NCBI GenBank assembly: GCA_012845835.1 | Contig: JABAKD010000011.1 | Span: 6,882,381-6,946,380, forward strand | DNA length: 64,000 nucleotides | Direction: 5' to 3' | From: Undaria pinnatifida | Taxonomy: Eukaryota > Sar > Phaeophyceae > Laminariales > Alariaceae | Part shown: positions 28,584 through 62,999 of the stretch, piece by piece | How positions within the stretch are numbered: position 1 is the stretch's first letter | How the letters are laid out: each line of letters begins with the position of its first letter | Notes under the pieces: generated by a model | Seen by the model: the letters and a program-made list of their open reading frames with translations, nothing else | Told to the model about the DNA's origin: nothing | Databases searched by the model: none | Program-made: the position numbers and the translations under genes

Positions 28584-28631
28584 GGAGCGGTAAAGCCGTC
28601 GTAGCCTGTCATAGTCAGGCTTCTTCGGGCT

Positions 28632-30880: not shown

Positions 30881-30884
30881 GGTG

Positions 30885-31187: not shown

Positions 31188-31501
31188 ATGACCAGCTCCC
31201 GAGCAATCACGGCGGCTGCAGTCCTGGCCGCCTGCCCGACGGCCGTGGCCTTCGTTCCTCGCGTCCCTCTGGGGAGGAGCGTGTACACTTCGCCAGCACC
31301 TTCGCTACAAGTATCCTCATCGTTGGGACCACGTTCATCCCGGTCGGATGGCTTCAACGGTTTGCAAGCACCCAAGAGCCGCGCGAATCAAGTCTCGGCC
31401 GCGGCCCCCCTGAGTGCGTTCGCTCCTCCACGAGTCCTTTTGGGACTTGACAGGAAGAAATTGACCATAAAAGTGGCGATTACCGATCGGCCAAATGGGG
31501 G
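31188..31501 (+). CDS. Lipoxygenase exon 1: bipartite plastid presequence
   Basis: The exon starts M-T-S-S-R-A-I-T-A-A-A-V-L-A-A-C, a signal-peptide-like hydrophobic core, followed by A-V-A/F-V-P-R, the heterokont plastid cleavage motif with Phe at +1. A Ser/Arg/Pro-rich transit peptide lacking acidic residues follows for about 60 residues. It ends L-D-R-K-K-L-T-I-K-V-A-I-T-D-R-P-N-G before GTAACG at 31502. Such presequences send nucleus-encoded proteins through the ER membrane into complex plastids. The donor leaves two bases of a codon, while exon 2 expects one. The donor lies in a run of six G, so a one-base length error would reconcile them. An unseen small exon is the alternative. Confidence 0.75.
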
Positions 31502-34500
31502 GTAACGCGGGGTACCGTACCGGATATGATGGGCTGACGATAGGCTTGGTAGTGTTCCGAGCCACGGTGGTGGTGTAACGTTTTTTTTTTGTTGTTGTTT
31601 ATCATACTCGTGCCGCTGCGCGTTCATGCTGGACTAGGCGGTTGGCAAAAAATGCACGTTTTTTTTTGTTGGTTGTGTCGTTTGTTATTCCTGGGGCCTC
31701 GAACTGGCAACCAAGTCTCGCCGTTTAGACAGGTTGTTGTACTCTCCCGCGGCAGACGCATGACACGATAGAGGTATACCTTTTTTTGGCTATTTTGTTT
31801 CTGAACAACGATGTTCCTTAACCCAAAATCGTCGGAAATACGACATTTTTCTTCCCATGATTCTCGGTGCATACCTAGGCCATGGGATTCATCCGGTACG
31901 TATATAAGCAGTTTCATCTGATTAACCTCCCGAATTGGGAAACATGAGAAAAAAAGTGATGCATCTCTATCGTAGCACGCGTCGGCATGAAGGCGGGTGT
32001 CACCGCAAGCCATGTTGTTCGATCGTTGCGGGGTCGTAGTCATATTCCCCGCCTCCCTTTTCTGGGGTGTAAAGTTCTCTGACGATTCGTCCTAACCCGA
32101 GCCTTTTTTTTTCCCGTCTTCGTCGTCGGTAGCCGTTTCATCCGCCGCTTAATCGGCAGCTTCGTTTGTAACTGTCTCATCCGCCGCTTCGTCGGTAATT
32201 TTCTTGCCAGTCGCTCCGTCGGCAATTGTCTTACCCGTCGCTTCGTCGGTAACTGTCTTATCCGCTGCTTCGTCGGTATTTGTCTTATCCACCGTTTCGT
32301 CGGTATCTGTCTCATCGGCCGATTCGTTGGTATCTGTCTTATCCGCCCCTTCGTCGGTAACTGTCTTTATCCGCCGCTTCGTCGGGAACTGTCTTATCCT
32401 CCGCATCGCCGGCATCACCTCTTGTTTTCATCCTCATCATCAACACACTCGCTACGATTCGATGACGACGGTTGTATTGCCAGATGCCTTGCCGACGGCC
32501 GTTACCGACGTTCGTGGTGCAGCTGAAGAAGGCGGGTCCTTGATCGTCAAAATTGTTGAGGGTGAGTGGTGCCCCCCCTCACGTCCGTCTCCCTTGAAAC
32601 CAAAGATGTCAGGAGACGGCACCTTGACCCCTTGACGGACGGCAATTTTCCGATAAGTTGCCTTGACTGACGGCAAACTACCAGGTTTCAGTGAGGAACG
32701 ATCCCTTTGACACCCTTGACCGCTGGACGTTTTCCTTGACGGACCGTCTCCTGGCATCTTTGCTTGAAGCATTAGCCCTTTTTGGGGCCCATGTACAGCG
32801 ACAAAACAAAGCATAGCAAGCCACGTTCTTAATCGTCACGGTGCGAGCATGCAGCACACGGCGGCAGCGCAAGCTATGCGCGTGTCTTACCGGTGGTAGC
32901 TGCATTGAAGTTCGACAGTAAAATCATCGTCAGTTAATCTACTGTAGGACACAACCTGCAGTACAGGTGCCGCCTTTTTTTTCTGTGGGCTCTATATACC
33001 TCGCCTCCCCAAAATGTTTTTGGGAAACGTCGGATAGTGCAACGGCTATTCATATACCTCGCCCCTCAAAGAATATTCTGGGGTAAATTTTCTGAAAGTT
33101 CAACCAGCTGACCAAAAACCATGGGCAGAGGTATAAAAAAAGCTCGTAAAAGTTCAACCAGCTGACCAAAAACCCATGGGCAGAGGTATAAAAAAAGCTC
33201 GTTTTCGCAAAACAAGGTTGAAATTCCGACTATTTGGGGTGAAGAAGCCCCGTCGTTCAGAAAAAAAAAAAAAAATCAGCCCAAAAGTGCCATCTCTATC
33301 GTAGCACGCGTCGTAGCAGCCCGGGTTGCTTCGTATGAAATAAGCTGAAAAGTTTTCTTCGTCAACGCTTCCCCTCTGAAGCGCCTACAGGGTTTTCCAC
33401 GTTTTGGAAGCCAGGAATCGGGATTTTGAAACACGACAAGAAGAGTTGTCTTAGCAATCATCTAGAGAAATATCGTGGCACAGCAGTAGCACTGCGGATA
33501 CCACAATGCGCGCGTTGTACTTCTGCTTTCGTTGCGGCGGAGACGTTCCCTGCCCCGGTAGCCCGAGCTGATTGATGTAATAGATGCCGCAATTCATTAA
33601 AAAAATGTTCATTTTTTTTGCCGACGTTTTTTTTTTCTTGTTAAAAATATAGTTTTTCCCTCTTGAAGGTCCCAAATGGGATCTTACGAAGTGACAATGA
33701 GCAGAGATTTTTGATGTCTTGAAATCGTGCGAATCAAATTATCCCCCCCCCGATATATATGGACATACTCAAGATACCAGGTATGAATTACTGCTTGCTT
33801 ATTTTGTTTCTCCCCCCAAGGCAAGGTGGAATTGATGTTTCATGTCATGGATTCGTGCGAGTCGATTTCGTTTCACCCCCCCCATCTCCCCTTTCCATCA
33901 CCTGCTTTGAACACCAAAAATAATGCGTGTGTATGTGTGTTCTTCACAGTACGCTGATGATGTTTCCACCCATCTACACCCAGCACAACCATGTCCATGC
34001 GGATGCCTCACAGAAAGAGGGCTGCAGAAAGGCGAGGTCTGTTGTCACAGACTACGAGGCAAAGATACACGTTGCAAATACAGCAAGGTGATTTGGCCAT
34101 GCAATGCCAACCGCAATGAGCACGCGGGCCAAAAACATACATATTCAAGCCAGCACACCAGACTGTTCTGCAGTACAAAATAAAATAAGGAATTACTTGA
34201 ACTAGTGCGGATTCGTACGTTTTCACCCCTCCGCCTCATGCATTTGATTCTGTCGTCTGCCTCGAAGATGGAATTGTGTTTTATCAAAGTCTCGAATTCA
34301 GTATATTACGACTTTGCAAGAGTATTGGGCGGGGACACAAAAGTGTCCCCTGCAGGTCCGCCAATTGAGCAGGTTCTCGGAGAGTACTCACTTTCTTAGC
34401 CTTGGGAGAGACGTAGCCTTATTAGTTTCCACCAGAGCCCCGGATGACCTCTGGGAACGAAGACACGTTCCTCCGTTCTACTTCCTGACTATGCCGAATA

Positions 34501-37500
34501 GAAAACGCCAACATATCATGCGAAAACCGGCAAATTACCTATCAAATCAGATAATTGCAGGCCTTTCAAGGCCGTACCTTAACAACTTACCATTGAATAT
34601 CCAGCACCCCCACACCAATGTGATGCTCCTGTAGGCCTGTATTTTTGTTTTGCATTTTTTGGTGGGAAAAGCAAGGACAGCGGCGCGCGTGCGCATGCGC
34701 GCGTGTGGGTTCAAGCACAGCCCTTAGATTTCCGTGACATCGTGCTACACAGAAGTGCAGCTGCCCTGCGCTGCACCGCACGATACAGCTAACAGTAGCG
34801 CTACCAAGCGTTTTGGAACGGTGTTGGTGCGAATAGAGCACCAGATATGGTACACAGCGCACACAAGCAAAGCCGGGAATTTTTGGTGATATTTTTTACG
34901 AGTATCATGCGCTTGGTTTTGTGTGACCGGGGCTTGTGTTTGGTGTGCTTGTTTCTGTTTCATGTCATAGATCACCCCCCCTTCCCCCCCCGACCGCGCC
35001 CCCGCTCTCCTTGTACCGTTCCGTCGATTGAACAGCCTTAATGGACAGAGAGGTCTGCCTCCCTGCAGACAGCGGAGATCCGGTAGCCCGTGCAGAGGAG
35101 TTGATACAACAGCAGCAAATCTACGATTGGAGCACCGATGTGAGGGTCAATATCATCTTCCTCTATTATGGCTAGAAAAAAAAAAACTTGAGGACGAATT
35201 TTTCTTTGATGGCTTTATTTTTGACTTAGTGTGTTCTAACGCACCTAGCTGCTCAGCGATCTAGGGCATCGCGAGCATCAGAGACAGCAGCATATGCTTG
35301 GATTTGATTTGTCGCCGTCATCTGCCATGCATGGTCCTTGTGCGGACGAACAAAAAAACATGGTGGGGACGGTCGATCTTGACTTCCTGCAACCTTGCGT
35401 TGTCGGCATGTACAGCCGACGGTTGTCCCAAAAGACTACTACTGTTGTATCGCGTTTTACCCAAAATAAATTTAGGCTTTGGTGTCCCCCAGTCTTCACG
35501 ACCATCCAGCGGCCGCCCACACACGCAGCGAGCTGCTGCTGGTTTTCCTGCCTTCTGCTGCCTGCTGCTGCTGCCTGCCGTTGCGTGTCGATGCCCCTGT
35601 CGCTCATTCCCTAGCGTATGCTGCCGGTATACCTCAAGTATTACCGCTGGCAATATCTATGATTTTTGAGCCTGCAGTGCTGCCTGTAGGTGTGGTATTG
35701 CGCTCACGTCCAAGAAACAAGTCATATTTCGTAACTGAAATCCACACAAATAATGTGCAGGCGTCCCCTGTGAAGCAAACATGTCAGGAGACCGCACTTT
35801 GACCCCTTGACCGACGGCAATTTTCACGTTATGCTCTGACTGACGCCAAACTACTAGGTTTTAGTGTGGAACGATCGGGTTTATACTCTCGACCGCTGGA
35901 CATTTTCCCTTGATTGACCGTCACCAGACATTTTGCTGTGGAGTACTCGTAGTAAGCAAATTTCGTCCCGACTAAAGTCAATAATGCGGGTTCAAACCCC
36001 CCCGAGCGCGTGCATACTCGTGCTCGTACGAAGGGATTTATTTCGTGCGTAAAAAATGGACCATTAGCGGCGGAAGCGCGAGAGCATGAGTTAGCAAAGG
36101 TCGAGGAAACGCGACGAGCGCCAAAAGCTGAAAAGTGGGAATGCTGAACCCTGTACGCGATAATGATGAAGTCATGTACCGAGGGGGAGGGGAGACACCT
36201 GTGACGACGGCTTATCCAGGAGGTCGCTAAAGGGTGAAACAGTAGGATACGAGTTGAGCGGGAGAGTAAAAGTGAAAAGCGATGATTTTACAAAAAAAAA
36301 CGTTTCGGGAGGAGAGACCATGGCTCGCTCTGCTCGAACCCAGTATACTGAGTCCAGTACACTGGTTCAATCCAGTGCACTGATGCAGTCTAGTACACTG
36401 GGTGCTGACACAGATCAATGAGAGTATCATCTACTGATATTGAGGCTGCCAGCGCACAGCCCTATGTATGAATACCAAATATGATGCATTGTTTCACAGC
36501 GATATTCCCTGTCTTGTCTCTTGAGACTACCACGTTTACGCGTAAAATAATTCCGTCCATCCATCTGTCCACGACCCCCTCATTGCTCGTACAGCCTCGA
36601 AACAAACAAATATATGCCCCCCCAGGGGTGTACCCGGTATATAAGCTTGCACCCCTTCTTAACGTACTGCTTTTGGTATACCGATACATATATATATATA
36701 TATATATCTTTATATTTTTTTCACGCTTCTACTTTCCAGCTTCTGGACAAGCCGTGGGTCACAGGTGTCGCCCCTTCTTCCCCCCGGTTCTTGCCTTCAA
36801 TTTTTATCGCGCTTAGGGTTCAGCAATCCCAGCGCTCGCGATTTTTCATCGAGTGTTGCTAGCTCACGCTCTCGCGCTTTCCGCATGCCAATTTGTGCAC
36901 AAGAAAAAGGGTTACTAGGGTTAGGGTTAGGTGCACCTGGTACCAGGTCCCAACCCGACCGGGAGCGCAATCCCTCTCACCTAGCCCCAAAACAGCAAAA
37001 TCATGCGAGTACACGGTGGGATCGGGGTGTGCACATAAAATACAATGTTTTGGGTGGGGGTGCAAGGCTTGTGTACACCCCTAGGGGTGTATATATTTTT
37101 TCTTCTTGCACAAAAAGCGCTACCTTCCCCTGTCGCATCTAAAACTGCTCTCGAACCGTGCTACGATGATTGAGGCAAAAGTGCTCGTCGTCGCGCGTTG
37201 GCCGGAGTGAGTCTACGGCAGACCCCCCCAACTTTTCTTGAACGAAATCACCGGGTGTGGAAACCAGCTCCCGCGACCATTATCTCCTGAAAATACGGTG
37301 CCCGTTGCCACCCCGACGTCATCGTTCGGTATGATATGTCCTTTGAAAAACAAAAAAACATGTGAAGATGCTGTTTCTTGAGCATCCTTCCTCGTGTCGA
37401 GCAGCCATGAAAAGTTCATTGAAGAAAAACGCCTTTTTTGGGGGGGTGAGGGGGAGCTATCGTAGCACTTTTTGATCCACTTTCTCTTTTTCGGCATGAC

Positions 37501-40500
37501 GGGTGCTCCCTAACCCATTTCCAACTCCTAATTGTTTTTCATAGTCTAACTCGAAGTGTTTTGTCCCCATCTCTGGACTGCGTTCCTAAAAGGGTTAATA
37601 ACCCAAAAATCGTCGGAACGCCATGTCTGTCTTGTTTTGGCCAAAATGTTGACATTTTTTTTATCCCTAGGCCACACGATGGGTTTGTTTGGCCATCGGG
37701 GTGCATGTTCAGTTTTCTCGGAAACATGTTGGCGTTACTAACTGACTGACTGATCTTAATCGTCGCAATGCCATGTCTTGTTTTGGCAAAAAGTTAACAT
37801 TTTGTTGCATCCCGAGGCCATACAGATGGGTTTGTTTGGCCATCCAGGTAGGTGCATTTTCAGTTTGCTCGGAAATATGTTGGCGTTACTGACTGACTGA
37901 CTCTTCGCTCACACGCACTCCTTCCTTTTCGCCCGGCATTCCGCCTTCGCTCCCTCCGACTCGCGGACTTGGCGTGCCAACGCTTCGCGGTATGATGCGA
38001 CTTTTCAGGGCATATTTGGAGATGTCCCCTTCCTTGCCGGCACACTCCCCGACGCGGAGGAAACGGGGCTTTTGTGGAAGACAAAAGTTGTGGAATCTCT
38101 GGTGGACCTAATCGCCGGCACTATCAGGTGCGTCACCGCCGGCTGTAACGCGAGCGAGCTACGTATTGTTTAGAACTCGTGCTCTATATATGATGCGCGA
38201 TGCAGCGACAGCCAGCAGTATTTTTTTCTTTTACTAGAACGATGTATGAATGACGGAGCCTCCTTGAAAAAGTTAAAGGTCGTGACAGTAGAGTCTGCTT
38301 CTTTTTTTTCCAATTGTGTTCGCGTTTATGTATGCCTAAGTCATGGTGGACTCGTTTTCTCGGGTTTGCACTCTTCATTTTTATGAAAAATATAGCAGTT
38401 TTCGCTAGAGGTATGAGGAGCCCCCCCTCAAGGGATGGGCCTCTGAAAAACTAGGAGCGCCCGCTGCCATCGTAGCATGCGCCGGTAGGGAAAATAACAG
38501 CGCTTTTCGGCGAAAAACAAATCCTCGCGGCGCATCTCATCTGAAGAACTACCGGATGCCGTTGCTATGCTTATCAGTGACGCGTGCCACAATAGAAGTG
38601 CACCACGTTTTTTGTTCTGAGGAGGTTCCTCAGTTTTTGGAGCTGAAGACATGTCAGTCTTAACCCCAAAAAACTGATTTGTAGGAGAAAAATAGAACTG
38701 CTATCATACACACCGGATGAAAAATCCCATGGCGTCGGTACACGACGAGAATCATGCAAACAAAATGGCCTTCGTATTATATATTTTTTTCCGACGATAG
38801 TGTTAGTAGGTTAAGGAGCCCCCGTCATTTAGAAACAATTTTCGCCAAAAAAAGGTATACCTCTATCGTAGCACGCGTCTAGTATAAACATCAGTCGTTG
38901 AATAGATGGATGCCCGGGCCATGAGATGTTGTTGGTTGTGTAGATGCCCAGACCGTGATGTGTAGATGCCGAGGTCATGGTGCATAGATGACCAGGCCAC
39001 GGGGTTGTTGTTCGTTGAATAGATGCCGAGGTCATGGTTCATAGATGACCAGGCCATGGGACTGTTGTTCGTTGAATAGATTGCGAGGTCATGATGCACA
39101 GATCACCAGGCCATGATGTTGTTGTTCGTTGTGTAGATGCCGAGGCCGTTTGTGCATTGTATAGATGCCGAGATCATGATGCACAGATCACCAGGCAATG
39201 AAGTTGTTATTCGTTGTGTAGATCCCGAGGCCTTTATTCGTTGTATAGGTGCCGAGGTCATGATGCACAGATGACCAGGCAATGAAGTTGTCATTCGTTG
39301 TGTAGATGTCGAGGCCGTTAACACCATGGCCTGGTCATGATGCACAGATGATCAGGCCATGGTGTTGTTATGGTGTTGTTACTCGCCGACTAGATTAGAT
39401 GCCCGACACATGCTAGGTGCGGTAGAGGCGCGCCATTTTTTTTTCTTAATACTCCTCCTCACTTGGGCTTTCAACCTCTCCCCAAACCCGATTTGGAGAA
39501 GACTAGCGCTCCTAAGTACCAGATAAACCATCACATCCATGGCCTGATTTATTTGGCCAGTTTCAGCTCGGGCAAGAATTTACTGCAGGGAATTTTTTTG
39601 TTCCGTGTATTCCGAAATAACTGTGTCCCCTAAATCGCATTCCCAAAATTCTAGGAAAAAAAAAAAAATCGCTTATCTATAATAAATTAAGAGGCATCGA
39701 ACAACATGGACAATTTTTTTAAAGGAATACAAGGAATATATCATGTTATGGTGCATCAAAAATTAACGAAATTCCGACCGTTTTGGGGTTAAGGCGCGCC
39801 CCGTCATTCAGAAACTTTTTTTTACGAAAAAGTGCTATTACGGAGATGCCATTGTTAACAGGATGAAAATTTCACAAAAGAAAAAGAAAAAAGGGAAGCA
39901 TCGCCACTTTATGGGCGAGCTCTCTCTCCTGCGCTACAACTGTGTTCGATCGAGGCTCTGTATACTCGGCAAGAGCAGCCAAACGGAAGTGGACTGTAGC
40001 CAAGCGCGTTTGCACAAAGCCGGGTGCTTTTTTTGTCCCCCTTTGTCGTTTGATAATTTCATCCTGCTGACGATGGATCTCCGTAATACCTCTATCGTAG
40101 CATGCATTAGTTGCCCATGCCGTGAGGTTTGTTCACCGGATTGCGCACGTTTCAGTTTTTGTCACCATCAACAGGCAGCTGTTGTTGCCTTCGGTCGGCA
40201 TGGACCCCGTTTCGAACGAGGAGAGTGAGACATGGTAGGGGACGCCTCTGTTTTCTGGCGCTGGTGTTTTCCAACTCTTGAAAGAAAAATCCCAAGTCTA
40301 GATTCTGACTCCCCAAGTGTTTTGCCCTCATGTCGGAGACTGCGGTGCTAAAAGGGTTTTTGAGACTCGTGGTACGGCGGTCGGGAAGAGATATTAACCG
40401 GGCGTTTTCTGAGCCCCCCCTCAACTTTTACCGGATCCATACCCCACCAAACACTTTGCTCTTGACATAAAAACTGAATGTAGTACAAGTACATATCACC

Positions 40501-49500: not shown

Positions 49501-52452
49501 TGACTGTATTAATAGTGTTTTCTCGAGGTATGTACGCCGCCATCGAATTGTTTTTGTTACACTGCTTGCTTTGAAAAAGGGGCACTCCCCCCGCCCCCGT
49601 TTCCTTGGTCACCCCATCCCGTCCCGCTCAGCCCCACCTCCCGCGCCGGCTTCTGCGTATAATTTGTGTGATTTTCGCTCTTATCCTGACCTGGCCAAGG
49701 AACAGGGGGCAACTGCATCACCATCCAAAAATGCTCCGAGACAACGTACAACAAGCTGGGGCTATCGTTGGCACAAGAGGAATATACGGCAAGAGCGGGC
49801 GTTTTTGTTTCTTTGCGTGCAGGCGTTCCACGACTTGACAATTGCGTGCAACGATAGGAGTAGTTTTTTTTTCGGCTAAAATTTGTCCTGCGTGGCGGGG
49901 CTCCTTAACCAAGAATCGTCGGAAAATACCGTTCTTGTTTTGGCCAATAAAAGTCGTTGTATACCCAGGGGGAGCACTTAAAGAAAGAAGAACCGGAGCC
50001 ACACTCCTAGAAAGGTAAAACAAAAAAAGAATCGGAGCGTTGCGATTTCTGTGCGAATCGAGGGATTGGCGTTTCTTTTCGAACTTTTTATTTGTTTGGT
50101 TCTAGTATCCCCCCCCTCCTGTCAGGCTCCTTAAAAAGTGTGGGTTAGATACTTTTTTCGTGCTCCCCTGGCGAAAGATGTCAGGAGACGGCACTTCCAA
50201 CCCTTGACAGACGGCAGTTTCCCAAAAATTACCTTGACTGACGGCAAAATACTAGGTGTTAGTGTGGAAGGCTTCGTTTGACACCCTTGACTGACCGTCT
50301 CCTGACATCTTTGCCCCTGGTATACCTGATATACCTTGGCCATGGGATTGTTCGTTGGGTCACACGCTTATTTTTTTCTCAACTTTTTTTTTCGTTCTGG
50401 TTGGGGTATACACGAAGGCTCTTCACGGGTCATGACCCGCTCCCCTGGGTCGGGTAAGGAGGTATTAATAGTTCAAAAACCCGCGGTGTTCCAGAAATGT
50501 TACAATCTGCCCAAGGTGCAGGGTTTGAAACCAGCTTGTCCGAGAGCTACAAACAGTTGTTGGTTACAAGGAAGACCTGCGCCACACCCTATTGGTTACA
50601 AGGTAATCCATGTTTGGAGCCTGTGCATAGTATTATGCATAACGTGTTAGCCATCCATTGTGACGTAGCGCACGATAATTGGTCACAGCTCTACCGTTTG
50701 TTCAAATGGCACATGATACAGCATATGGTAGTACGATACCTGAGACACCCCATTACCTGATGTTTGGCCACAACCCGCTGTACGTATTATCGTCTCCCTC
50801 GAACGTTGAAATTGATTTTTGTCTCCAACTATGAATACGGACATGAACTAATTTCACCCCCCCCTCCCCCCGCCCCCCCCACACCACACCACACGTACAT
50901 ATCCCTGTTGTTGTCGTCTGCTTCGATGGTGGAAATTAGTTAATGTCTTGAATAAGTATGGGTCAACTAAATTATTCCGTCCCTGTACTATTAATTAGTT
51001 ACCAACCTCCCCCCAACACATAACAATGGTAATATTTGTTGTTGTATTATTACATACACCCCCTTTATATTCCGCCCCTCTTTCGCAAAATGAATCAATT
51101 ACGACCCCCCCCCCCCCCACCCCTAAAAAATAAAAATAGTACGCCTTTAATTGTTTGCAATACCCCCACTATGTATGGTGTGTATCGCGCTTTGTGAGCT
51201 CGTGTGATTGAAACGATAGAGTTGAGATTTCGAGGGGTCCGGTTCATGTGCAACACATGATATCCGTACACGCCGTAAGGATCTCGCTGCAAACCCGGTT
51301 ACAAACACACAAAAATAAACGTGTTTTTTGTCTGCACAGTACAATATGTGTCGGGAATAGCAAGGTGCAGCGAAGGCAGTCAAGTCAGTATTAGAGAGAC
51401 TTTGTTACCACTTGCAGGCCAGCATTGGAATCCGTGGGTTCTTTCCGAGAAGGTGAGCAGACAATCGTACAACTGCTGCTCGTTCCCGCGGGGAAACACT
51501 GTGCTGCTAAATACGTACGCGCCTCTCTTCTAGCTTGCAAATCTTACACGGTTCATAAAAGGGAGGCAGGAGGCAGTATCGGTGCCCGTCTTATGGCGGC
51601 GCGTACAGCTACCACCACCAATGCACAGCTACCGCCTACCATCCATCCGCCCAGCGAACACAAATTGACGGCAGATACAAGTGTCCTGCCGCGCGAGTTC
51701 CTTACTACAGCTGTCGAGTACTACATTTTTATGAATATAGGTTTAGCATCAGCCGTCGACGCACATCATAGTCAACTAACAGGGTTTATTTTTTCGCGTC
51801 CCCCGCAGCAAAAACGCCACCACATATTTTGTAGTGTGTAGAGTTACACCAAGTTTATGGTGGGGATATATGTAGTATTCTATCTTACCCCCCCTTCCGC
51901 TCCCCTGCTCTGTTGGCGTTTTGTTTTCGTTTGCCAGGAGCTTAAGACCAAGGTCGACAGCCTTTACGCCGCCGGGCATCTGTTCGTCGTCGACCACGAG
52001 CTTCTCGCGGTAAGAAAGGTTAAAAGGTTTCGCAATGCCGGACAGATCACGATGTAGATCATATAGATCCCATAGATCCTAGATGTAAAAAGTACGATTA
52101 CCAACAAGAAGTAATATTAGCAGCAATCGGACCCGTGGTTATGACACACTTATTCAAGAAGCGCAGTAACTTCGGCCGCACCATGTGACGGGAAACCTGT
52201 CAGCGCTGCAGCTGTAGATCATGCAATAGCTGGCGCTGAGCATAGGTTGGGGTAGAGCGAAAACAGAGTGGACTAGTCTCTCACAGCACAGACGTCGAAG
52301 GTGTCTGTACCGACGGGCTAAAGATCCTAGAGGATGCCATTCAGGGCAGATTGTGTCTCTGGTCTACCACGTATATATCCCACAAAAAGGTCGCTAAATC
52401 ATCATGTACTTCGAAGTGTTTTCGTCGTCGTCGTCGTCGTCGCCGTTGTTGT

Positions 52453-52487
<35 letters not shown>

Positions 52488-55400
52488 TTCGCATATTAAC
52501 TCGCATTATCAAGTCCGTGTTCACAGGACAGGCTCCAGTCACTCCGGAGTGGAAGAATATACCCCATGTGTATGTCATTCAGAGCAGATATTTAGATAAA
52601 CCAGATCGCCATGCGTGATCTACCTGCCATTCAGAGCAGATATATATAAATATCTGGGTTATACTATATGAAAAAATTGTTTAGCCGGTTGCCCCGGTGG
52701 TCTAGTGGTTACCCTGGAATACTACTAGCGTTGGTCTTTGAATCCAATTCCCACCGTGACGAGATTTTTACTTTATTTGCAAAAATGCAAAAAAAAAATA
52801 TCAACTGCTGAGAGCGCCTAGCAGCGTGGGTACGCACAATTCGACGCGAGTCGACGAGGGGAGAAAATGCTGAGTTCTTCTCGCGATAAAAACGAAGGCA
52901 CGTACCGTGGTGGGGAGGGGGGAGGAGGGCCCGCTATGCAACCCCGGATCTGAGCTACTATTGGGAGGGAGGGCGAGAGTAGTGCGAGGATAATAAATGG
53001 GATGGAAAAAAAAGATAATAGAGCTCTAGTTAGGAGCCTCGGAATGACATGGTGCTACCCCTAGGCATGTCCTACGATAGGTGTGTGTTCGAGCGGGCCT
53101 GACAGGGTTGTCGGTGCTGGGAAGCAGCGCTCTCCTTGTGGTTCTTGGTGTACAGGGTTGTCAGTTTTGGGAAGCAGCGCTCTCCTCATGGTTCATGGTG
53201 TCTTTTGTTCACACATTATCTCTCCATTGGCTCTCTGCTTGGGACACGAGGGCAAGGGACAGAGAGACTTCTGCCGCGCCCTCAAAGTGGGATGACTCGT
53301 TGCCTGGACGCATGCTAGGGCACAGGCGCGCCATTTTCTTTTTCAGAGAGCTTCTTCGTCGCTCTGAGGAAGTTCCCTTTATGCCTCACCTCCTTTATGC
53401 CTCACCTCCTCAAAAGCTGATTTCGAGAAACAGAAGAAGTCCTCTTCGATGAACAATCCCATGGCATATTATGAAGAAATTAAAATACACTCCAGCTGTG
53501 AGATCGAAGATTTCGTCGAAACTCAACGTTGCAAACTGTGTGTGATACTTCGGTCGCGCGTATTACTGAGTGTGTGTGTCCTCACCAAGGATACAGGCCG
53601 GCGACTCCCCTTGAGCTGCAGTGTAGCTTGTACGAGGGTCAACAGGGTGGTGTCAACCAATCTGTGCGCGGAAAGTATAATACCTTTTTTTGAGGGGGGG
53701 GGGATCTGACGACTGTGGAGGAATGCAATGTGTATAGGTACACGACCAAAAATATACTACAAACATGGAAAAAATGAAAAATTTCGACCATTTGGGGTTA
53801 AGGTAGCCCCGTCGTGCAGAAAATCGCTTCGGCCAAAAAGTGGTATACCCTAATGCTTCTATCGTAGCACGTGCCCCTGAATAAGCTGGACAATCTGAAT
53901 GATCTGAATGATCTGAATGATCTGAATGATCTGAATGATCTGAATGATACAGCACATAATGTTTTCTAGGTTGGGCGTGAGCTTACACAGATCCTGCACC
54001 GCTTACCAATCACGACGGCAGGTGCAATACCTAAATAATCTAAATCGAGGTCTGCCCGATGTGTGAAAGGTCGTCGCCATCCTCCGCGTGGCACAAGTAC
54101 CGCTCCCCCCCCGCCTCCTGGTGCTCGGTCTCGTAAGGGAATCGTGGTCAATGGTGTAAATACTAAGGCAAGCAACAAATGAGTACGCCCCCCGCCCCCC
54201 CCCCGCCCCCGATTCTCCCCGTCCTTGTGCTTTGCCTGGCGCCCGCGGTTTCGTTGCGGTAATATGCGGATGGTCGTGTACAGGGTAAGACGACGGCGTC
54301 TGTCGACGGTTACCAAAAATTCCTTGCTCCGTGTGTGGCAATGTTCGAGTATGTCCAAGAAGACCAAGGTCTGCTGCCAATCAAGGCCATCGGCATCCAG
54401 GTGAAAATGAAATGAAGCGTTTTCGCACGTCAGACACATGCGTGTGTTTTTTTTGTAAAATCTCCATCGGATGGGGGAAAATAAAGCTTTCAAGATCACC
54501 ACACACACCACAATTCTACGCATTTTCATGAATATCGTGTCGATTTAACTCATTTGTATTAACAATCCAACGCTACTGTAGCTGACATATCCTTCAGTTC
54601 CCGTGGCAATGACAGCGCGAGCTCTCCCTACCCGGGTGGTCACCGTTTCTAAGCCAGCAGTGCAAGCTCCCGTTGTATACGGGTGCGTGAGTAGCCGACC
54701 CGACGTTGTTGTTGTTGTTATGATTACTGTTGTTGTTATCATTATCACCATTATCACCATTATCACCATTATCATTGTCATTGTCATTGCCATTGTCATT
54801 GTCATTATCATTTTCATTATCATTTTCATTTATCATTATTGGTCCTCCGGCGGATGGTCATAATCGGAGTTCGCGCTGTACCGTAGACGAATCTTACTCT
54901 GTTCACGGCCTAGAAAACGCGCAGCACTTTAACCTTGTGTTGTTGGAACACGTGCCACCGCTCTCGTCTCGGCGTACTGTTTTGGGGTGTCGTTACAGCA
55001 GCAAACACGTCTTCGCTGATGTCGTTCCTGCCGCTGCAGCCGCCGCCGGCGTTGCTGAACATGTGCAACCGCTATCTGTACGGCATGCTCTCTTTTCGAG
55101 AGTTGTTACTGCACCACGCCACATGTTTACTGATGTCCGCCCCTGGTCTCTGTATCGGTCTTCTGTCCTTCTCGTCAGCTGAACCAAGGGGAAGTGGCCA
55201 GCCCAATTTTCATGCCCACCGACGGGGACAACTGGGAGATCGCCAAAGCTTGCTTCAGGGCCGCGGACTCCATGTAAGCGCTACGCCGTCCCCGATGTTG
55301 TTCCGCAAAAGTGCCACGGCGCGGCGAAGATAGCGGGGGTGGTGGGGGCAGGGATGTCGAAAATATATGCTTGGTCGAACGAACTGGACGCAACAGCTGA

Positions 55401-61400: not shown

Positions 61401-61898
61401 GAAAAAGGGAAAGGAAACGTGCGAAGAAAATAGAAGGGATGACAAAAAAAACAACAAAAAAAAGAGCCGGCTGTCGGTTGAGATTCGGAACTCTTCGCGC
61501 GAGGAGCCTCATAATGTTAATTTTAGCCCCCAACCCCCCCCCTCATTTATTGTAGCACGCGTCTGCGTCGTTTTTTTTTTTGGAAATCATTGGATTGGGG
61601 TAGAGCGGAGAATACCCTGCTGTGACGCCCGTCGGCCTTTTCTTGCATTCGTTCCTCGCTGATTTTTTCATCTTCTTTTTCTCCTGTTTATTCCGTCGTG
61701 CTCTTGTTCTTGCTGTTTTTTTTTTTCCCAACCAACGACAGCATCCATGAGGTCATCTCTCACCTGGCGTACACCCATATCGTGCTGGAAGGGCCCATGG
61801 TCTCGATAAACCGCCAGCTATCCCCGGACCACCCCATCAACAAGCTGCTTCGGGCCCACCTCCAAGGGACCGCCGCGATCAACCTCGGGGCACAGAAC
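31188..61898 (+). CDS. Lipoxygenase gene, plastid-targeted, 5' part, at least 11 exons, runs past the window
   Basis: The exons are 31188-31501, 32484-32561, 35036-35139, 38009-38127, 44878-45038, 47342-47450, 51418-51452, 51938-52009, 54284-54400, 55179-55273 and 61742-61898, about 1361 nt. Lipoxygenases insert O2 into polyunsaturated fatty acids using a non-haem iron. Exon 11 carries the full five-His signature, and exons 8 to 10 match the preceding conserved blocks (L-F-V-V-D, P-I-K-A-I-G-I-Q, W-E-I-A-K). The presequence suggests plastid import, where galactolipid-derived fatty acids would be substrates for oxylipin synthesis. All joins from exon 2 onward agree in phase, except for one surplus base inside exon 5. 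The exon 1 to exon 2 join is off by one. The last third (third His ligand, Asn, terminal Ile) is not in the window. Confidence 0.88.
32130..32412. repeat. 27-bp minisatellite
   Basis: About ten units based on CGTCGGTAACTGTCTTATCC plus GCYGCTT lie in intron 1. The period is 27, so both strands stay open in translation: the minus strand gives a 9-residue hydrophilic repeat (T-D-E-A-A-D-K-T-V). I treat it as a repeat and not a gene, since no start, splice pattern or conserved flank supports coding. Confidence 0.8.
32484..32561 (+). CDS. Lipoxygenase exon 2
   Basis: This follows an acceptor TATTGCCAG and ends before GTGAGT. It encodes A-L-P-T-A-V-T-D-V-R-G-A-A-E, then S-L-I-V-K-I-V-E. It ends with one base of a codon, which joins cleanly to exon 3. 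The N-terminal region of lipoxygenases is poorly conserved, so the assignment rests on splice borders, phase and position. Confidence 0.62.
32601..32762. mobile_element. hAT-like MITE, copy 2
   Basis: 162 bp from CAAAGATGTCAGGAGACGG to CCGTCTCCTGGCATCTTTG. Flanks CTTGAAAC (32593-32600) and CTTGAAGC (32763-32770) match in seven of eight bases. It lies just 39 bp downstream of exon 2, inside intron 2. Confidence 0.88.
33100..33205 (+). repeat. Short tandem duplication (~51 bp)
   Basis: The unit AGTTCAACCAGCTGACCAAA to GGTATAAAAAAAGCTCG occurs twice in a row in intron 2. A copy of the GGGTTAAGGAGCCCC family fragment follows (33230-33310). Confidence 0.7.
33930..34140. repeat. Dispersed repeat, GTGATTTGGCCA family
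   Basis: The landmarks TACACCCAGCACAACC, GAGGTCTGTTGTCACAGAC, TACGAGGCAAAGATACAC and GTGATTTGGCCATGCAATGC are in the same order as the right arm of the 14990-15335 palindrome. Confidence 0.65.
34325..34605 (-). repeat. Dispersed ~240-bp repeat, copy 2
   Basis: This is the complement of the 16585-16830 unit, from CAGGTCCGCCAATTGAGCAG to TTCAAGGCCGTAC, in intron 2 of the lipoxygenase gene. Confidence 0.6.
35036..35139 (+). CDS. Lipoxygenase exon 3
   Basis: The acceptor is GATTGAACAG. The exon encodes L-M-D-R-E-V-C-L-P-A-D-S-G-D-P-V-A-R-A-E, then E-L-I-Q-Q-Q-Q-I-Y-D-W-S-T-D before GTGAGG. Lipoxygenases commonly have a helix of the form R-x-x-E-L-x-x-x-R-x-x-Y-x-W just before the L-P-G-L-P segment, and this corresponds. 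It ends in phase 0, matching exon 4. Confidence 0.83.
35776..35935. mobile_element. hAT-like MITE, copy 3
   Basis: 160 bp, starting CAAACATGTCAGGAGACCG and ending GACATTTTG. Flanks CTGTGAAG (35768-35775) and CTGTGGAG (35936-35943) match in seven of eight bases. Its ends have diverged more than those of copies 2 and 4, so it is probably older. Confidence 0.85.
36676..36720 (+). repeat. (TA)n microsatellite
   Basis: A run of about ten TA units lies within an AT-rich part of intron 3. The surrounding 35945-36900 shows no gene; short repeated words CCAGT(A/G)CACTG occur at 36340-36400. Confidence 0.6.
36900..37110. repeat. Arm of the inverted-repeat element with telomere-like motif
   Basis: GGGTTAGGGTTAGG at 36918-36931 is followed by CACCTGGTACCAGGTCCCAACCC, words also found at 16165 and 16545, and by GGGTGTATATATTTTTTC as at 17020. 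This looks like another partial copy of the 15480-17195 element in intron 3. Confidence 0.5.
38009..38127 (+). CDS. Lipoxygenase exon 4
   Basis: The acceptor is CGACTTTTCAG. The exon encodes G-I-F-G-D-V-P-F-L-A-G-T-L-P-D-A-E-E, then K-V-V-E-S-L-V-D-L-I-A-G-T-I before GTGCGT. Bacterial and algal lipoxygenases have a similar G-L-P-x-x-P-x-A-x-x-L-P-x-D-E segment followed by an amphipathic helix, directly after the Y-x-W helix of exon 3. Start phase 0 fits exon 3. It ends with two bases of a codon, fitting exon 5. Confidence 0.88.
38785..38885 (+). repeat. GGGTTAAGGAGCCCC dispersed repeat (example copy)
   Basis: This unit reads roughly TTTTCCGACGAT, TTAGGTTAAGGAGCCCC, GTCATTTAGAAACAATTTTCGC, GGTATACCTCTATCGTAGCA. 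Related copies by eye: 31780-31850, 33230-33310, 37595-37680, 39770-39850, 40085-40105, 41850-41960, 43050-43132, 49895-49945, 53785-53875 and 62080-62460. It is concentrated in the lipoxygenase introns and shows no coding potential. Confidence 0.65.
38905..39410. repeat. 57-bp minisatellite
   Basis: About nine units, some shortened, built from GATGCCGAGGTCATGRTGCA, AGATGACCAGGCCATG and TTGTTGTTCGTTGTGTA. The period of 57 is a multiple of three, so the minus strand reads as a 19-residue repeat (M-H-H-D-L-G-I-Y-S-T-N-N). It lies in intron 4. Nothing beyond the open frame argues for translation. Confidence 0.85.
40790..41500. repeat. Dispersed TTTGTCCCC / TACTTGG repeat fragments
   Basis: Fragments with ACCCCTTTTAGAGCCCCC, GTAACTTTTGTCCCC (40790-40860) and their complement GGGGACCAAATTACTTGGAA, GGGAGGGGTTTACGGGCTC (41415-41495) belong to one family. 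It also appears at 17485-17570, 45885-45965, 47940-47990 and 63295-63355. It is non-coding; each copy is about 90 bp. Confidence 0.55.
41500..42900. other. Intron 4 interior, no gene seen
   Basis: Short direct repeats of GAGCAACAAAACTGAGTT are present at 41706-41790. A CCCGACCCGTGAGAT-type repeat at 42530-42720 resembles 17290-17360. No exon-like frame with splice borders was found. Confidence 0.4.
43506..44627. mobile_element. hAT-type DNA transposon with 41-bp subterminal arrays (element 2)
   Basis: The left end is CAAGGGCGTGCTCGGTACGG. The complement of the right end starts CAAGGGTGTGTTAGTTACGG. Flanks GGGATTAC (43498-43505) and GGGATGAC (44628-44635) match in seven of eight bases. Subterminal arrays of the 41-bp unit lie at about 43530-43700 and 44195-44600, in the opposite orientation to element 1. 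The middle (43700-44190) is unique, non-coding and unlike the middle of element 1. It sits in intron 4, 250 bp upstream of exon 5. Confidence 0.85.
44878..45038 (+). CDS. Lipoxygenase exon 5 with EF-hand-like loop, one surplus base
   Basis: After the acceptor GCGTTAG, in the phase set by exon 4, it reads G-K-V-K-G-V-G-V-E-E-V-H-L-A-L-Q-N-L-L, then D-S-I-E-D. One base later in frame it reads I-F-D-G-N-G-D-G-H-I-D-S-P, then Q-R-V-L-Q-A-L-Q-K-V-Y-E-D-E-L before GTAAGT, in the phase exon 6 requires. The length, 161 nt, is one base more than the two neighbours allow, with the switch at about 44948-44955. The Asp-x-Asn-x-Asp-Gly-x-Ile-Asp loop resembles an EF-hand, but position 12 is Leu instead of Glu. 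The extra base is either an assembly error or a real disabling mutation. Confidence 0.75.
45039..47341. other. Intron 5, no further exon seen
   Basis: This holds a copy of the TTACTTG repeat (45885-45965) and a half copy of the palindromic element (46990-47060). Overlapping open frames at 46341-46769 (Ala/Arg-rich) and 46378-46566 have no family resemblance and are bounded by no convincing splice sites. Confidence 0.4.
47342..47450 (+). CDS. Lipoxygenase exon 6
   Basis: The acceptor is GTGGGTCAG and the donor GTAAGG. It encodes A-E-S-L-D-D-Y-N-R-L-H-S-Y-P-M-E-T-P-D, then V-Y-D-F-Q-D-D-D-A-F-A-R-D-R-L-Q. Many lipoxygenases have a L-x-D-Y-x-x-L-F-x-x-x-P-x-P segment followed by W-x-x-D-x-x-F-x-x-Q-R-L-x-G. 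Here F-Q-D-D-D-A-F-A-R-D-R-L-Q-G corresponds to the latter. It ends with one base of the Gly codon, matching exon 7. Confidence 0.88.
48305..48505 (+). repeat. ~65-bp tandem repeat, three diverged units
   Basis: Each unit contains (G)ATCCGTGGGA or GTCCGTGGGG, then TTCATCGG or TTCCACATC, then CTTCCTGGTTTTCTC or similar, in intron 6. The apparent S/V/F-rich frame 48183-48518 is a product of this repeat. Confidence 0.55.
49100..50100. other. Intron 6 interior, no gene seen
   Basis: A plus frame (49206-49430) with G-G-V-L-S-G-Y-T-P-P-H-F-L-P has no recognised similarity and lacks splice borders. GTTACCGGTAAC, a perfect 12-bp palindrome, lies at about 49159-49170, and CTACCGGTAACG at 49392-49403. 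A GGGTTAAGGAGCCCC relative is near 49895. Confidence 0.35.
50173..50313. mobile_element. hAT-like MITE, copy 4
   Basis: 141 bp, starting GAAAGATGTCAGGAGACGG and ending CCGTCTCCTGACATCTTTG. Flanks CCCCTGGC (50165-50172) and CCCCTGGT (50314-50321) match in seven of eight bases. It lies in intron 6. It lacks the CCGCTGGAC stretch found in copies 2 and 3. Confidence 0.87.
51418..51452 (+). CDS. Lipoxygenase exon 7, 35-nt micro-exon
   Basis: The acceptor is CCACTTGCAG and the donor GTGAGC. It completes the Gly codon left by exon 6 and adds Q-H-W-N-P-W-V-L-S-E-K, ending in phase 0 as exon 8 needs. Lipoxygenases have a conserved G-x-N-P-x-x-I/L after R-L-x-G, and N-P-W-V-L fits. Compared with animal and bacterial enzymes, about 15 to 25 residues are missing between here and the start of exon 8, so a further small exon in 51453-51937 may have been missed. 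Confidence 0.65.
51938..52009 (+). CDS. Lipoxygenase exon 8
   Basis: The acceptor is TTTGCCAG and the donor GTAAGA; 24 codons, phase 0 on both sides. It encodes E-L-K-T-K-V-D-S-L-Y-A-A-G-H-L-F-V-V-D-H, then E-L-L-A. The family has x-G-x-L-F-I-V-D-Y/H-E-x-L at this place, the start of the catalytic domain core. Confidence 0.92.
52423..52556 (-). mobile_element. LINE 3'-end fragment with degenerate (GTY)n array
   Basis: CGT, GTT and GCT triplets fill about 52423-52487. They are followed by the complement of the LINE terminus (CATATTAACTCGCATTATC, GTCCGTGTTCACAGGACAGG). Only about 70 bp of LINE sequence remain. It lies in intron 8. Confidence 0.75.
52684..53012 (+). mobile_element. tRNA-derived SINE, copy 1
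   Basis: The head CCCCGGTGGTCTAGTGGTTA carries an RNA polymerase III A box, and TTTGAATCCAATTCCC is a degenerate B box. The body runs through TGCTGAGAGCGCCTAGCAGC, GACGCGAGTCGACGAGG and CCCCGGATCTGAG to AATAAATGGGATGG and an A-rich end. Copy 2 is at 59526-59872. Fragments lie at 56625-56700 and 61340-61445. Confidence 0.85.
53478..53690 (-). repeat. Half copy of the palindromic element
   Basis: This is the complement of the 7860-8105 half: CACTCCAGCTGTGAGATCGA, TTTCGTCGAAACTCA, GTGTGTGATACTTCGGTCGC, GGCGACTCCCCTTGAGCTGC, CCAATCTGTGCGCGGAAAG. It lies in intron 8. Confidence 0.7.
53893..53950 (+). repeat. 9-bp minisatellite (CTGAATGAT)n
   Basis: Six nearly perfect units of CTGAATGAT lie in intron 8, directly after a copy of the GGGTTAAGGAGCCCC-type repeat (53785-53875). 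Confidence 0.85.
54284..54400 (+). CDS. Lipoxygenase exon 9
   Basis: The acceptor is GTCGTGTACAG and the donor GTGAAA; 39 codons in phase 0. It encodes G-K-T-T-A-S-V-D-G-Y-Q-K-F-L-A-P-C-V-A-M, then F-E-Y-V-Q-E-D-Q-G-L-L-P-I-K-A-I-G-I-Q. This equals the family block Y-x-A-A-P-x-x-L-F-Y...G-x-L-x-P-I-A-I-Q-L, with the final L supplied by exon 10. Confidence 0.92.
54706..54838 (+). repeat. GTT / CATTAT microsatellite
   Basis: GTTGTTGTT is followed by about sixteen ATCATT-, ACCATT- or GTCATT-type hexamers in intron 9. All six frames stay open over it, which explains several long but meaningless frames. Confidence 0.85.
55179..55273 (+). CDS. Lipoxygenase exon 10
   Basis: The acceptor is CTCGTCAG and the donor GTAAGC. 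It encodes L-N-Q-G-E-V-A-S-P-I-F-M-P-T-D-G-D-N-W-E, then I-A-K-A-C-F-R-A-A-D-S and two bases of Ile. The family has I-F-x-P-x-D-x-x-x-W-x-L-A-K-x-x-x-R-x-A-D here, directly before the iron-binding helix. It joins exon 11 in phase. Confidence 0.94.
55845..56085. repeat. Palindromic-element fragment and GATCTA-rich tandem stretch
   Basis: About 55845-55915 is a half copy of the palindromic element (CACACACAGCTTGCAAA, TCGACAAAATCTTCGATC). From 55920 to 56085 short units such as ATGATCTATATGATC and TAGATCGTGATGTATGATC alternate. It lies in intron 10. Confidence 0.65.
56228..56590 (+). mobile_element. TRIM-like LTR element, copy C, left end rearranged
   Basis: This is a fossil, non-coding element of the same family as 25862-26243. 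The right terminal repeat is 56507-56590 (84 bp, TGTTATAAGG to CCTTAACA). The inner part has AAATGGCGTCGTCGACAG, GTGGGTTCAAATCCC and the purine tract. The left end is broken and partly inverted, giving a short hairpin. It lies in intron 10. Confidence 0.75.
56605..57280. other. SINE fragment and unassigned intron sequence
   Basis: About 56625-56700 has GCGAGTCTACGAGGGAAG, TGCTCACGATAAAAACGAAGG, matching the middle of the SINE at 52684-53012. The plus frame 56632-57087 runs through it and ends in a hydrophobic stretch; I found no family for it. Confidence 0.45.
57284..57739. repeat. 456-bp tandem duplication, copy 1
   Basis: From ACAGAATCTCGAGACAAAAC to ACTCTGTCCAATA. The second copy starts at 57754, 470 bp away, with only a handful of differences, so the duplication is recent. 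Minus frames in both copies read L-L-L-V-A-A-V-C-A-R-S-F-A-L-R and resemble no known family. Confidence 0.85.
57754..58212. repeat. 456-bp tandem duplication, copy 2
   Basis: This is the second copy of the unit at 57284-57739. A 14-bp spacer with TAGACTATAGTCTATA, a near-palindrome, separates the copies. Confidence 0.85.
58556..58962 (+). mobile_element. LINE 3'-end fragment with (AAC)n tail
   Basis: The pyrimidine-rich part 58556-58625 is followed by ACTTGCGTCTGTTGTG, CGCGAGTAATGAGACGTATG, TGGTGGAGGCATGAATTGCG and GGAGCCTGTCCTGTGACCAC, ending in about five AAC units. Orientation is opposite to the LINE at 27304-29342. It lies in intron 10. Confidence 0.85.
59526..59872 (+). mobile_element. 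tRNA-derived SINE, copy 2
   Basis: The head GCCGCCCCGGTGGTCTAGTG has a good A box, and CCTTGAGTTCGACACCC a near-consensus B box, so this copy preserves the promoter better than copy 1. The body ends AATAAATGGGATGAAG and an A-run. The head resembles a tRNA with a TGGTCTAGTGGTT D-arm, as in Glu or Asp tRNAs. Confidence 0.88.
60652..60820. other. Cluster of three perfect hairpins
   Basis: Hairpin 1 (60652-60683) has a 15-bp perfect stem GCATGGGCGCCGGCG with a 2-base AA loop. Hairpin 2 has the stem CCTCCTGC at 60757-60764 and GCAGGAGG at 60771-60778. Hairpin 3 is a perfect 22-bp palindrome at 60799-60820 centred on GAGCGCTC. All three lie within 170 bp in intron 10, with GC-rich stems in an otherwise mixed sequence. 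Confidence 0.8.
61340..61445 (+). repeat. SINE 3'-end fragment
   Basis: GTGGGGAGAAGGGGAGAAGAG, GTGACCCCGGATCTGAGTCA and AGAAGGGATGA match the end of the SINEs at 52684 and 59526. The head is absent. Confidence 0.65.
61742..61898 (+). CDS. Lipoxygenase exon 11: iron-binding signature
   Basis: The acceptor is AACGACAG and the donor GTGAGA. It encodes H-E-V-I-S-H-L-A-Y-T-H-I-V-L-E-G-P, then N-R-Q-L-S-P-D-H-P-I-N-K-L-L-R-A-H and T-A-A-I-N-L-G-A-Q-N. The five His are spaced 4, 4, 17 and 8 residues apart, exactly the lipoxygenase signature. The second and third His (codons 61761-61763 and 61776-61778) are the first two iron ligands. All five are intact, so there is no sign of decay in this exon. 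The exon ends in phase 0, and the next exon is outside the window. Confidence 0.96.
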
Positions 61899-62460
61899 GT
61901 GAGACACATGAATTTTGTTTTTCGGGGGCTCAATTACGGGGTCTCAATATTTACACGAAAAAAAACGTTTTTGAGTGAGCTGAAAAATGCACCCCGATCA
62001 ACCAAACCGTGGCCTAGCTAGCTATAGGTGTACCAAAAAAGACATCGTTTTGATGCTCAAAAAAGAGAATCATTTGGCCATTTCCGACGATTGTGGTTTG
62101 AAAATAGTCAATAGTTGCTAACAAAAAAAGAATGGCATTTCCGACGATTTTGGTTTTCGATAAAAATCATAGTTGTGCTCAAAAAAAGAATGGCACCTCC
62201 CGACGACTTTGGTTTGAAAAAAATCATAGGTTGCTCAGATGAAGAACATAAGGCATTCCGACAACGATTTTGGCCTTGCAAAAATCATGTCACTCAAAAA
62301 GGAATGGGCATTCCGGTGCTTTTGGTTGAAAAAAATATTACTTGCTAAAAAAAAGCGTGGGCATTCCTTTCGTGATTTGGATTAAGGAGCCCCTTAAATG
62401 TCTCGGAAAATAGTTTCAAACCCAAAAGTGCTCGTGCCTCTCTCTACTAGTACATAGCAC
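61899..62460 (+). repeat. Start of intron 11: degenerate array of TTTCCGACGATTTTGG units
   Basis: At least six imperfect units of the form AAAGAATGGCATTTCCGACGATT, TTGGTTTGAAAAAA(A)TCAT lie at 62070-62400. They end in a GATTAAGGAGCCCC block like the dispersed repeat. This is the only place where that repeat's head is tandemly amplified. Confidence 0.65.
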
Positions 62461-62563
62461 CCGTCGTAGGGCGTTCGTTTGATAGGTTCTCCTGAAACCC
62501 CTCCGCTGGTAGCAGACGGGTGACCCTCCATTATTCTGTTTTTTTAAACCATGCCTAACTAAC

Positions 62564-62565
62564 CC

Positions 62566-62605
<40 letters not shown>

Positions 62606-62613
62606 GCTGTTGT

Positions 62614-62651
<38 letters not shown>

Positions 62652-62996: not shown

Positions 62997-62999
62997 TAA

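What the first reader, a model, noticed from the sequence alone, without database searches (positions are those of the whole stretch)
31188..61898. One plastid-type lipoxygenase gene hidden in ten repeat-filled introns
No single open frame reveals this gene: its exons are 35 to 314 nt long, separated by introns of 0.5 to 6.8 kb. They were found by matching family blocks and splice phases. Exons 2 to 11 join in phase apart from one base in exon 5. Exon 11 has the complete His-x4-His-x4-His-x17-His-x8-His signature. Automated gene callers would probably split or miss the gene.
Basis: partly seen in the sequence, partly recalled or inferred. Interest (0 to 1): 0.85.

Follow-up and report, generated by a model that had tools for sequence, protein, structure and literature searches.

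The report
Long-intron algal lipoxygenase gene, cut off
This stretch holds the first part of an ordinary, intron-rich gene for a fatty-acid-oxidising enzyme (lipoxygenase), most likely of the kind known from brown algae; it is real but not new in kind.

Summary
Exons 3-11 (35036-61898, + strand) are nine GT-AG-bounded blocks that join in phase into 300 residues without a stop. Against a profile of 76 bacterial lipoxygenases the join scores 171.7 bits (163.4 for its one domain, positions 52-378 of 637). Pfam PF00305 matches at 5e-16. A spliced-profile search scored 158.5 bits on target and at most 29.9 in 30 random sequences. Exon 5 needs no shifted base: two phase-consistent forms exist. Exon 1 looks like a secondary-plastid presequence, but clashes in phase with exon 2; it can join exon 3 directly. 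The gene leaves the window: no credible exon 12 before 64000, so three iron ligands are unseen. "Plastid-type" may be right for targeting; the enzyme is of the bacterial/animal sequence type, not the plant kind. It fits published brown-algal lipoxygenases (PMC5712309: 15 of 18 genes with 15-20 introns, introns to 9.7 kb, six of 18 predicted in the chloroplast). The host is not identified, and no algal sequence was available to compare. Ordinary member of a known family.

The parts
31188..31501 (+). exon 1 (314 nt): ATG, signal peptide-like stretch, AVA|FVP start of a Ser/Arg-rich transit-like stretch; donor GTAACG
   Evidence: GC 61% against 48% in introns; donor only in the top 20% of GT sites; link to the rest unproven
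32523..32561 (+). possible exon 2 (39 nt), donor GTGAGT; joins exon 3 in phase, not exon 1; may be skipped or wrong
   Evidence: no family match
35036..35139 (+). exon 3 (104 nt; or 35049-35139 if joined directly to exon 1), profile start 52
   Evidence: E 0.9 alone
38009..38127 (+). exon 4 (119 nt)
   Evidence: E 5.4 alone; exons 3-4 joined 15.2 bits; splice sites
44948..45038 (+). exon 5 (91 nt form); 44885-45038 (154 nt) is also phase-consistent and scores nearly the same; the long form from 44878 needs a one-base shift
   Evidence: donor GTAAGT in top 0.1% of GT sites, acceptor poor
47342..47450 (+). exon 6 (109 nt)
   Evidence: six-frame segment 7e-6; donor GTAAGG
51418..51452 (+). exon 7 (35 nt), G-QH-WNP motif
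   Evidence: top of 214 candidates in phase
51938..52009 (+). exon 8 (72 nt)
   Evidence: E 36 alone
54284..54400 (+). exon 9 (117 nt)
   Evidence: E 0.22 alone
55179..55273 (+). exon 10 (95 nt)
   Evidence: 1.5e-5
61742..61898 (+). exon 11 (157 nt): five-His motif with first two iron ligands; Ala at the stereocontrol (Coffa) position 61890-61892
   Evidence: 1.2e-18
61899..64000 (+). start of intron 11; no credible exon 12

Best explanation
This is the 5' part of one nuclear gene for a non-heme-iron lipoxygenase of the prokaryote-like, single-domain kind known from brown algae, in an alga with a red-type secondary plastid. Nine or ten spliceosomal introns inflated by repeats separate the exons. 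Shown: colinear in-phase exons covering positions 52-378 of a 637-position bacterial lipoxygenase profile, with the five-His motif. Inferred: the transcript continues past 64000 to the third His, the Asn and the C-terminal Ile ligands; the protein enters the plastid by a signal peptide plus Phe-led transit peptide; it adds O2 to polyunsaturated fatty acids, probably with S stereochemistry (Ala at the Coffa position, a recalled rule), feeding oxylipin synthesis; the host is a brown alga or close kin.
For: Join 171.7 bits, one domain of 163.4; PF00305 5e-16; null controls; donors of eight of the nine exons 3-11 in the top 0.1-7% of GT sites (exon 9: 16%) on a hand-set GTRAGT scale; exons 3-8 alone 38.3 bits, best of 500 shuffles 1.2 (315 reported). 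Best PDB match 5mee. Brown-algal genes (PMC5712309): 15 of 18 with 15-20 introns, introns to 9,722 bp, 346-747 residues, grouping with prokaryotes, no beta barrel, six of 18 predicted in the chloroplast. Nine or ten introns by 59% of the profile extrapolates to about 15-17.
Against: No transcript; host unidentified; no algal lipoxygenase sequence was available to compare and no tree was built. Closeness to prokaryotes is not clear-cut: 3o8y (64.3 bits) and ALOX15B (62.5) score above the 4g32 enzyme (56.3; from Pseudomonas, as PMC5712309 says of 4g33), and over 49 residues of the His block identity is 49% to 3o8y, 45% to three plant-like chains and 47% median (39-57%) to 76 bacterial ones. Pfam sees only residues 221-298 of the join (exons 10-11), nothing in exons 3-8 alone, and the full join scores no better than a draft of fewer exons (58.8 against 61.2 bits). 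Exons 5 and 7 were chosen with the same profile that then scored the join. About 18 profile positions are missing between exons 7 and 8. Exon 1-exon 2 phase clash. My confidence was lowered from 0.8 to 0.75 on rechecking these prokaryote-against-animal comparisons.
Confidence: 0.75

Rival explanations
1. A decaying lipoxygenase pseudogene: a frameshift in exon 5 and a lost segment between exons 7 and 8 show it no longer makes an enzyme.
For: The long exon 5 needs a one-base shift; about 18 profile positions are missing; PMC5712309 reports two likely lipoxygenase pseudogenes in Saccharina.
Against: Two phase-consistent exon 5 forms exist; the extra 5' part of the long form has no lipoxygenase signal (-1.7 bits); no stop in 300 residues, splice sites and the five His intact.
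Confidence: 0.1
2. The same enzyme, but exon 1 belongs to another gene and the lipoxygenase is cytosolic with an unseen first exon.
For: Exon 1 has no family match and does not join exon 2 in phase; 12 of 18 brown-algal enzymes are not predicted in the chloroplast.
Against: Exon 1 is on the same strand just upstream, GC-rich, ends at a GT donor and joins exon 3 in phase through the acceptor ending at 35048.
Confidence: 0.25
3. A lipoxygenase of the same sequence type from a host that is not a brown alga, for example another red-lineage alga.
For: The host could not be identified; the presequence motif is shared by diatoms, cryptophytes and dinoflagellates (PMC4329603); the sequence lies about as close to animal as to bacterial enzymes.
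Against: Intron number and size match brown-algal genes, and PMC5712309 reports brown-algal enzymes closest to prokaryotes and not to those of the other stramenopiles it sampled.
Confidence: 0.2
4. A plant-type plastid 13-lipoxygenase.
For: The five-His spacing is shared by the plant enzymes; 45% identity to three plant-like chains in the His block, about the bacterial median.
Against: Leu not Trp after the second His, no PLAT match, lower plant scores.
Confidence: 0.03

Closest known systems
Brown-algal lipoxygenases (Saccharina japonica, Ectocarpus siliculosus, Cladosiphon okamuranus; PMC5712309)
   Same: Many introns, introns of several kb, same five-His motif, some with signal peptide and plastid prediction, no beta barrel, reported to group with prokaryotic enzymes
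   Different: Could not be compared by sequence; about 40% of the profile lies beyond the window here and the host is unknown
Bacterial lipoxygenases (myxobacteria, cyanobacteria, planctomycetes; solved example 5mee)
   Same: Best sequence matches; colinear from profile position 52 to 378; Ala at the stereocontrol position in 71 of 76
   Different: Single open frames in the bacterial loci used; the stretch between exons 4 and 6 is 32 residues here, 11 in 5mee and longer in the profile; about 18 positions missing here between exons 7 and 8
Animal 5- and 15-lipoxygenases (3o8y, 7laf)
   Same: Leu after the second His (seen in 3o8y); close second in score
   Different: Have an N-terminal beta barrel (PMC5712309 abstract); not compared over the whole length
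Plant lipoxygenases (soybean LOX-1, LOX-3)
   Same: Five-His spacing
   Different: PLAT domain (recalled) and Trp after the second His absent here

Membership tests
Lipoxygenase (PF00305) | Pfam match above curated cut-off | tested here: met
   58.8 bits against 23.6, E 5e-16
Lipoxygenase (PF00305) | His-x4-His-x4-His-x17-His-x8-His with two iron-binding His | tested here: met
   exon 11
Lipoxygenase (PF00305) | third His, Asn and C-terminal Ile iron ligands | not testable with these tools
   would lie past 64000; no exon 12 found
Brown-algal prokaryote-like lipoxygenase | closer to prokaryotic than to plant or animal enzymes | tested here: inconclusive
   best PDB score prokaryotic, but animal chains above a second bacterial one; His-block identity does not separate the groups; no tree built
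Brown-algal prokaryote-like lipoxygenase | 15-20 introns, some of several kb | tested here: inconclusive
   nine or ten introns of 485-6820 nt over 59% of the profile
Brown-algal prokaryote-like lipoxygenase | no N-terminal beta barrel (PLAT) | tested here: inconclusive
   no PLAT match in exons 1 and 3-11 at E up to 1 nor in the frame holding exon 2 at E up to 10; the true 5' structure is not settled
Brown-algal prokaryote-like lipoxygenase | host is a brown alga | not testable with these tools
   no genome held
Secondary-plastid bipartite presequence (ASAFAP type) | signal peptide, Phe at +1, hydroxylated, net-positive transit peptide | tested here: inconclusive
   AVA|FVP; 58 residues after the Phe with 12 Ser, 1 Thr, 5 Arg, 1 Lys, 1 Asp, 0 Glu; criteria seen as passages of PMC4329603; SignalP and ASAFind not run
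Plant plastid 13-lipoxygenase | PLAT domain | tested here: not met
   true 5' end not settled
Plant plastid 13-lipoxygenase | Trp after second motif His (as in 5 of 5 plant-like chains shown) | tested here: not met
   Leu here

The most novel reading that the evidence does not exclude
Exon 5 encodes a calcium-binding-like loop (FDGNGDGHIDSPL) inside the lipoxygenase, so this plastid enzyme could be switched by calcium through a built-in EF-hand-like element, which I do not know from the family (recalled; not searched for in print).
Probability: 0.03. Interest if true: 0.5.

Novelty: new member of a known kind. Interest (0 to 1): 0.15.

Why it matters
It is a worked example of how long-intron algal genes hide from open-reading-frame callers, and it gives exon coordinates that RNA-seq can test. 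The enzyme class is already described in brown algae, where lipoxygenases are linked to pheromones and defence oxylipins (PMC5712309, discussion read), so little changes beyond one more gene model.

Tried and rejected
Second lipoxygenase copy in the window (adjacent pairs occur in brown algae): none found on either strand. The minus-strand score of 46.4 bits is probably the poly-glutamine repeat at 62565-62747; its alignment was not traced.

L001 (IMG/VR contig) as a viral lipoxygenase: the matching stretch lies in a 343-residue frame that, by eye, lacks the five-His motif; it was not scanned against families and was left out of the profile.

Exon 12: of 310 candidates (acceptors 61951-63900, 30-219 nt, with a donor) the eight shown scored 9.2-10.8 bits against the profile, no better than stray candidates elsewhere (up to 11.4); rejected. 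The 21-nt piece at 62108-62128 that the spliced search appended lies in a tandem repeat; rejected. Missing segment between exons 7 and 8: 33 candidates, eight shown, none convincing. A small exon at 50522 was considered by eye and dropped for 51418-51452, which carries an NP motif and the top score. The donor at 47470 used by the first spliced alignment was replaced by GTAAGG at 47451; its pieces at 48524-48553 and 51842-51859 were dropped.

EF-hand in exon 5: Pfam EF-hand_5 E 0.25, 11.3 bits against a cut-off of 25.9: not significant. Rfam at gathering thresholds and ARAGORN on the window: nothing. NCBIfam: nothing. No tree and no structure prediction was made: no algal, plant or animal full-length sequences were at hand, and a spliced protein does not seem to meet the structure tool's stated condition. 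Identity in the His block as a classifier: does not discriminate.

Full report
What is there. Translating all six frames and searching 2823 stop-to-stop segments (12 residues or more) with a profile of 76 bacterial lipoxygenases puts five segments on top, all on the + strand and in model order along the window: exon 11 (1.2e-18), exon 6 (7e-6), exon 10 (1.5e-5), exon 9 (0.22) and exon 3 (0.9). The next, a stray on the minus strand, has 1.1, so only the first three are significant alone. The profile came from the one genome-contig scan: 121 relatives found, 80 kept, 77 with a frame holding the motif, 76 of at least 450 residues used.

Gene model. A spliced-profile alignment with hand-set splice weights found exons 8, 9, 10 and 11 with their final borders and exon 6 with borders later corrected, and it added small pieces that were dropped. 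Phase-constrained candidate lists gave exon 7 at 51418-51452 (best of 214 candidates) and exon 5 at 44948-45038 (best of 379; 44885-45038 is second, 11.9 against 12.1). Exons 3 and 4 were read by eye from ORF lists and sequence and checked in the join. Exons 3-11 join to 300 residues, the first completed by one base left over from exon 2, with no stop; introns run from 485 to 6820 nt. Donors of exons 3-11 lie in the top 0.1-7% of GT sites in 31-62 kb except exon 9 (16%); acceptors are less distinctive, 0.2% to 39% for eight of them, and that of the chosen exon 5 is poor (-2.3 against a median of -0.6).

Strength. The join scores 171.7 bits against the bacterial profile, 163.4 in a single domain from position 52 to 378. 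Exons 9-11 carry most of it; exons 3-8 alone score 38.3 bits, with the best of 500 shuffles at 1.2 (315 were reported), and exons 3-4 alone 15.2 bits. Since exons 5 and 7 were picked with this same profile, their share is somewhat circular. Pfam sees PF00305 at 5e-16 but only over residues 221-298, finds nothing in exons 3-8 alone, and gave slightly more to a draft of fewer exons (61.2 bits, against 58.8). The spliced search scores 158.5 bits on the target, 79.1 without exon 11, 23.4 on 30001-47000 alone, and 29.9 at most in 30 Markov sequences. So exons 3-5 are not detectable by that procedure on their own; they rest on order, phase, splice sites and the joined score.

In the long form (from 44878) the 5' part of exon 5 continues exon 4 in phase but runs in another frame than the 3' part. 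Starting at 44948, or at 44885 in the other frame, the exon joins both neighbours in phase, and the extra 5' part of the long form shows no lipoxygenase similarity (-1.7 bits). The simplest reading is that there is no frameshift; which form is right is open.

The 5' end. Exon 1 opens with Met three codons after an in-frame stop (one search prints it), then a hydrophobic stretch, AVA and FVP, then 58 residues with 12 Ser, 1 Thr, 5 Arg, 1 Lys and a single acidic residue. This fits the published description of secondary-plastid presequences: Phe at +1, many hydroxylated residues, few negative, net positive (passages of PMC4329603). Exon 1 leaves two bases over, exon 2 needs one; exon 3 taken from 35049 completes the codon and reads on in phase, as does a shorter form from 35073. 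Exon 1 to exon 3 directly is therefore the simplest in-phase link, leaving exon 2 doubtful in spite of its strong GTGAGT donor (top 0.3%).

The 3' end. Exon 11 ends at 61898 before GTGAGA. Of 310 candidate exons in the remaining 2.1 kb none stands out. The profile has 259 more positions, so about 40% of it is outside the window and activity cannot be judged in full.

What kind of lipoxygenase. In the PDB the best chain is 5mee (73.1 bits; cyanobacterial, recalled), then 5-lipoxygenase 3o8y (64.3; human, recalled), 8x8f and ALOX15B (62.5 each) and the Pseudomonas-type 4g32 (56.3); the only plant-like chain among the 22 listed has 43.5. Over 49 residues of the His block identity is 49% to 3o8y, 47% to 8x8f, 45% to each of three plant-like chains, and 39-57% (median 47%) to 76 bacterial enzymes, so this block alone does not separate the groups. 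The Leu after the second His (73 of 76 bacterial, 3 Phe; also 3o8y) against Trp in the 5 plant-like chains shown, and the lack of a PLAT match, argue against a plant enzyme. They do not separate bacterial from animal type. The residue 11 after the last motif His is Ala, as in 71 of 76 bacterial enzymes; that this position controls stereochemistry is recalled (the title of Coffa and Brash was seen in a reference list).

Comparison with the literature. PMC5712309 (abstract, sections 12, 16 and 17 and passages read) describes 18 brown-algal lipoxygenases that group with prokaryotic ones, 15 of them with 15-20 introns and ten with 17, introns up to 9,722 bp, six of 18 predicted in the chloroplast in its Table 1, and a single-domain fold. 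What is seen here fits. No brown-algal sequence was at hand, so the assignment rests on features, not on alignment. Diatom lipoxygenase papers were seen only as a search listing and, for one, two reference-list passages; the other paper searches were listings.

Repeats. 26% of intron bases are repeated elsewhere in the window (self-blastn, E up to 1e-5, tandem copies included) and none of the 1,252 exon bases, which fits exons that are not mobile sequence. Introns differ: 42% in intron 1, none in introns 7 and 9.

Verdict. A real, well-read gene; an ordinary member of a known family; the title's 'plastid-type' would better read 'bacterial/animal-type, possibly plastid-targeted'.

Noticed in passing
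window 1070-1432, - strand: DDE_3 transposase domain (PF13358, 3.5e-7) in a GC-rich stretch; four neighbouring - strand frames up to 6190 gave no Pfam match. Probably a DNA transposon.
   Followed up: partly
window 28635-29339, - strand: Reverse transcriptase (PF00078, 2.2e-12), LINE-like by eye; the next frame at 27960-28631 gave no Pfam match.
   Followed up: partly
window 21641-22112, 22872-23198, 43523-43659, 44301-44580: A 41-nt tandem repeat (CGGTACCGG...TTCGGTAAG type) in two arrays upstream of the gene and, inverted, in two arrays inside intron 4.
   Followed up: no
window 32152-32412: A 27-nt tandem repeat of 9.6 copies in intron 1 lies in an open frame of 160 codons (32153-32632), helped by a unit that is a multiple of three.
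   Followed up: no
window 62566-62746: A (TGT)n array of about 60 units, a long Gln run on the - strand, which gives false profile matches.
   Followed up: partly
window 44948-45038: Exon 5 reads FDGNGDGHIDSPL, close to an EF-hand loop but below significance (E 0.25).
   Followed up: partly
window 57284-58214: A 475-nt tandem duplication, 95% matching, inside intron 10.
   Followed up: no
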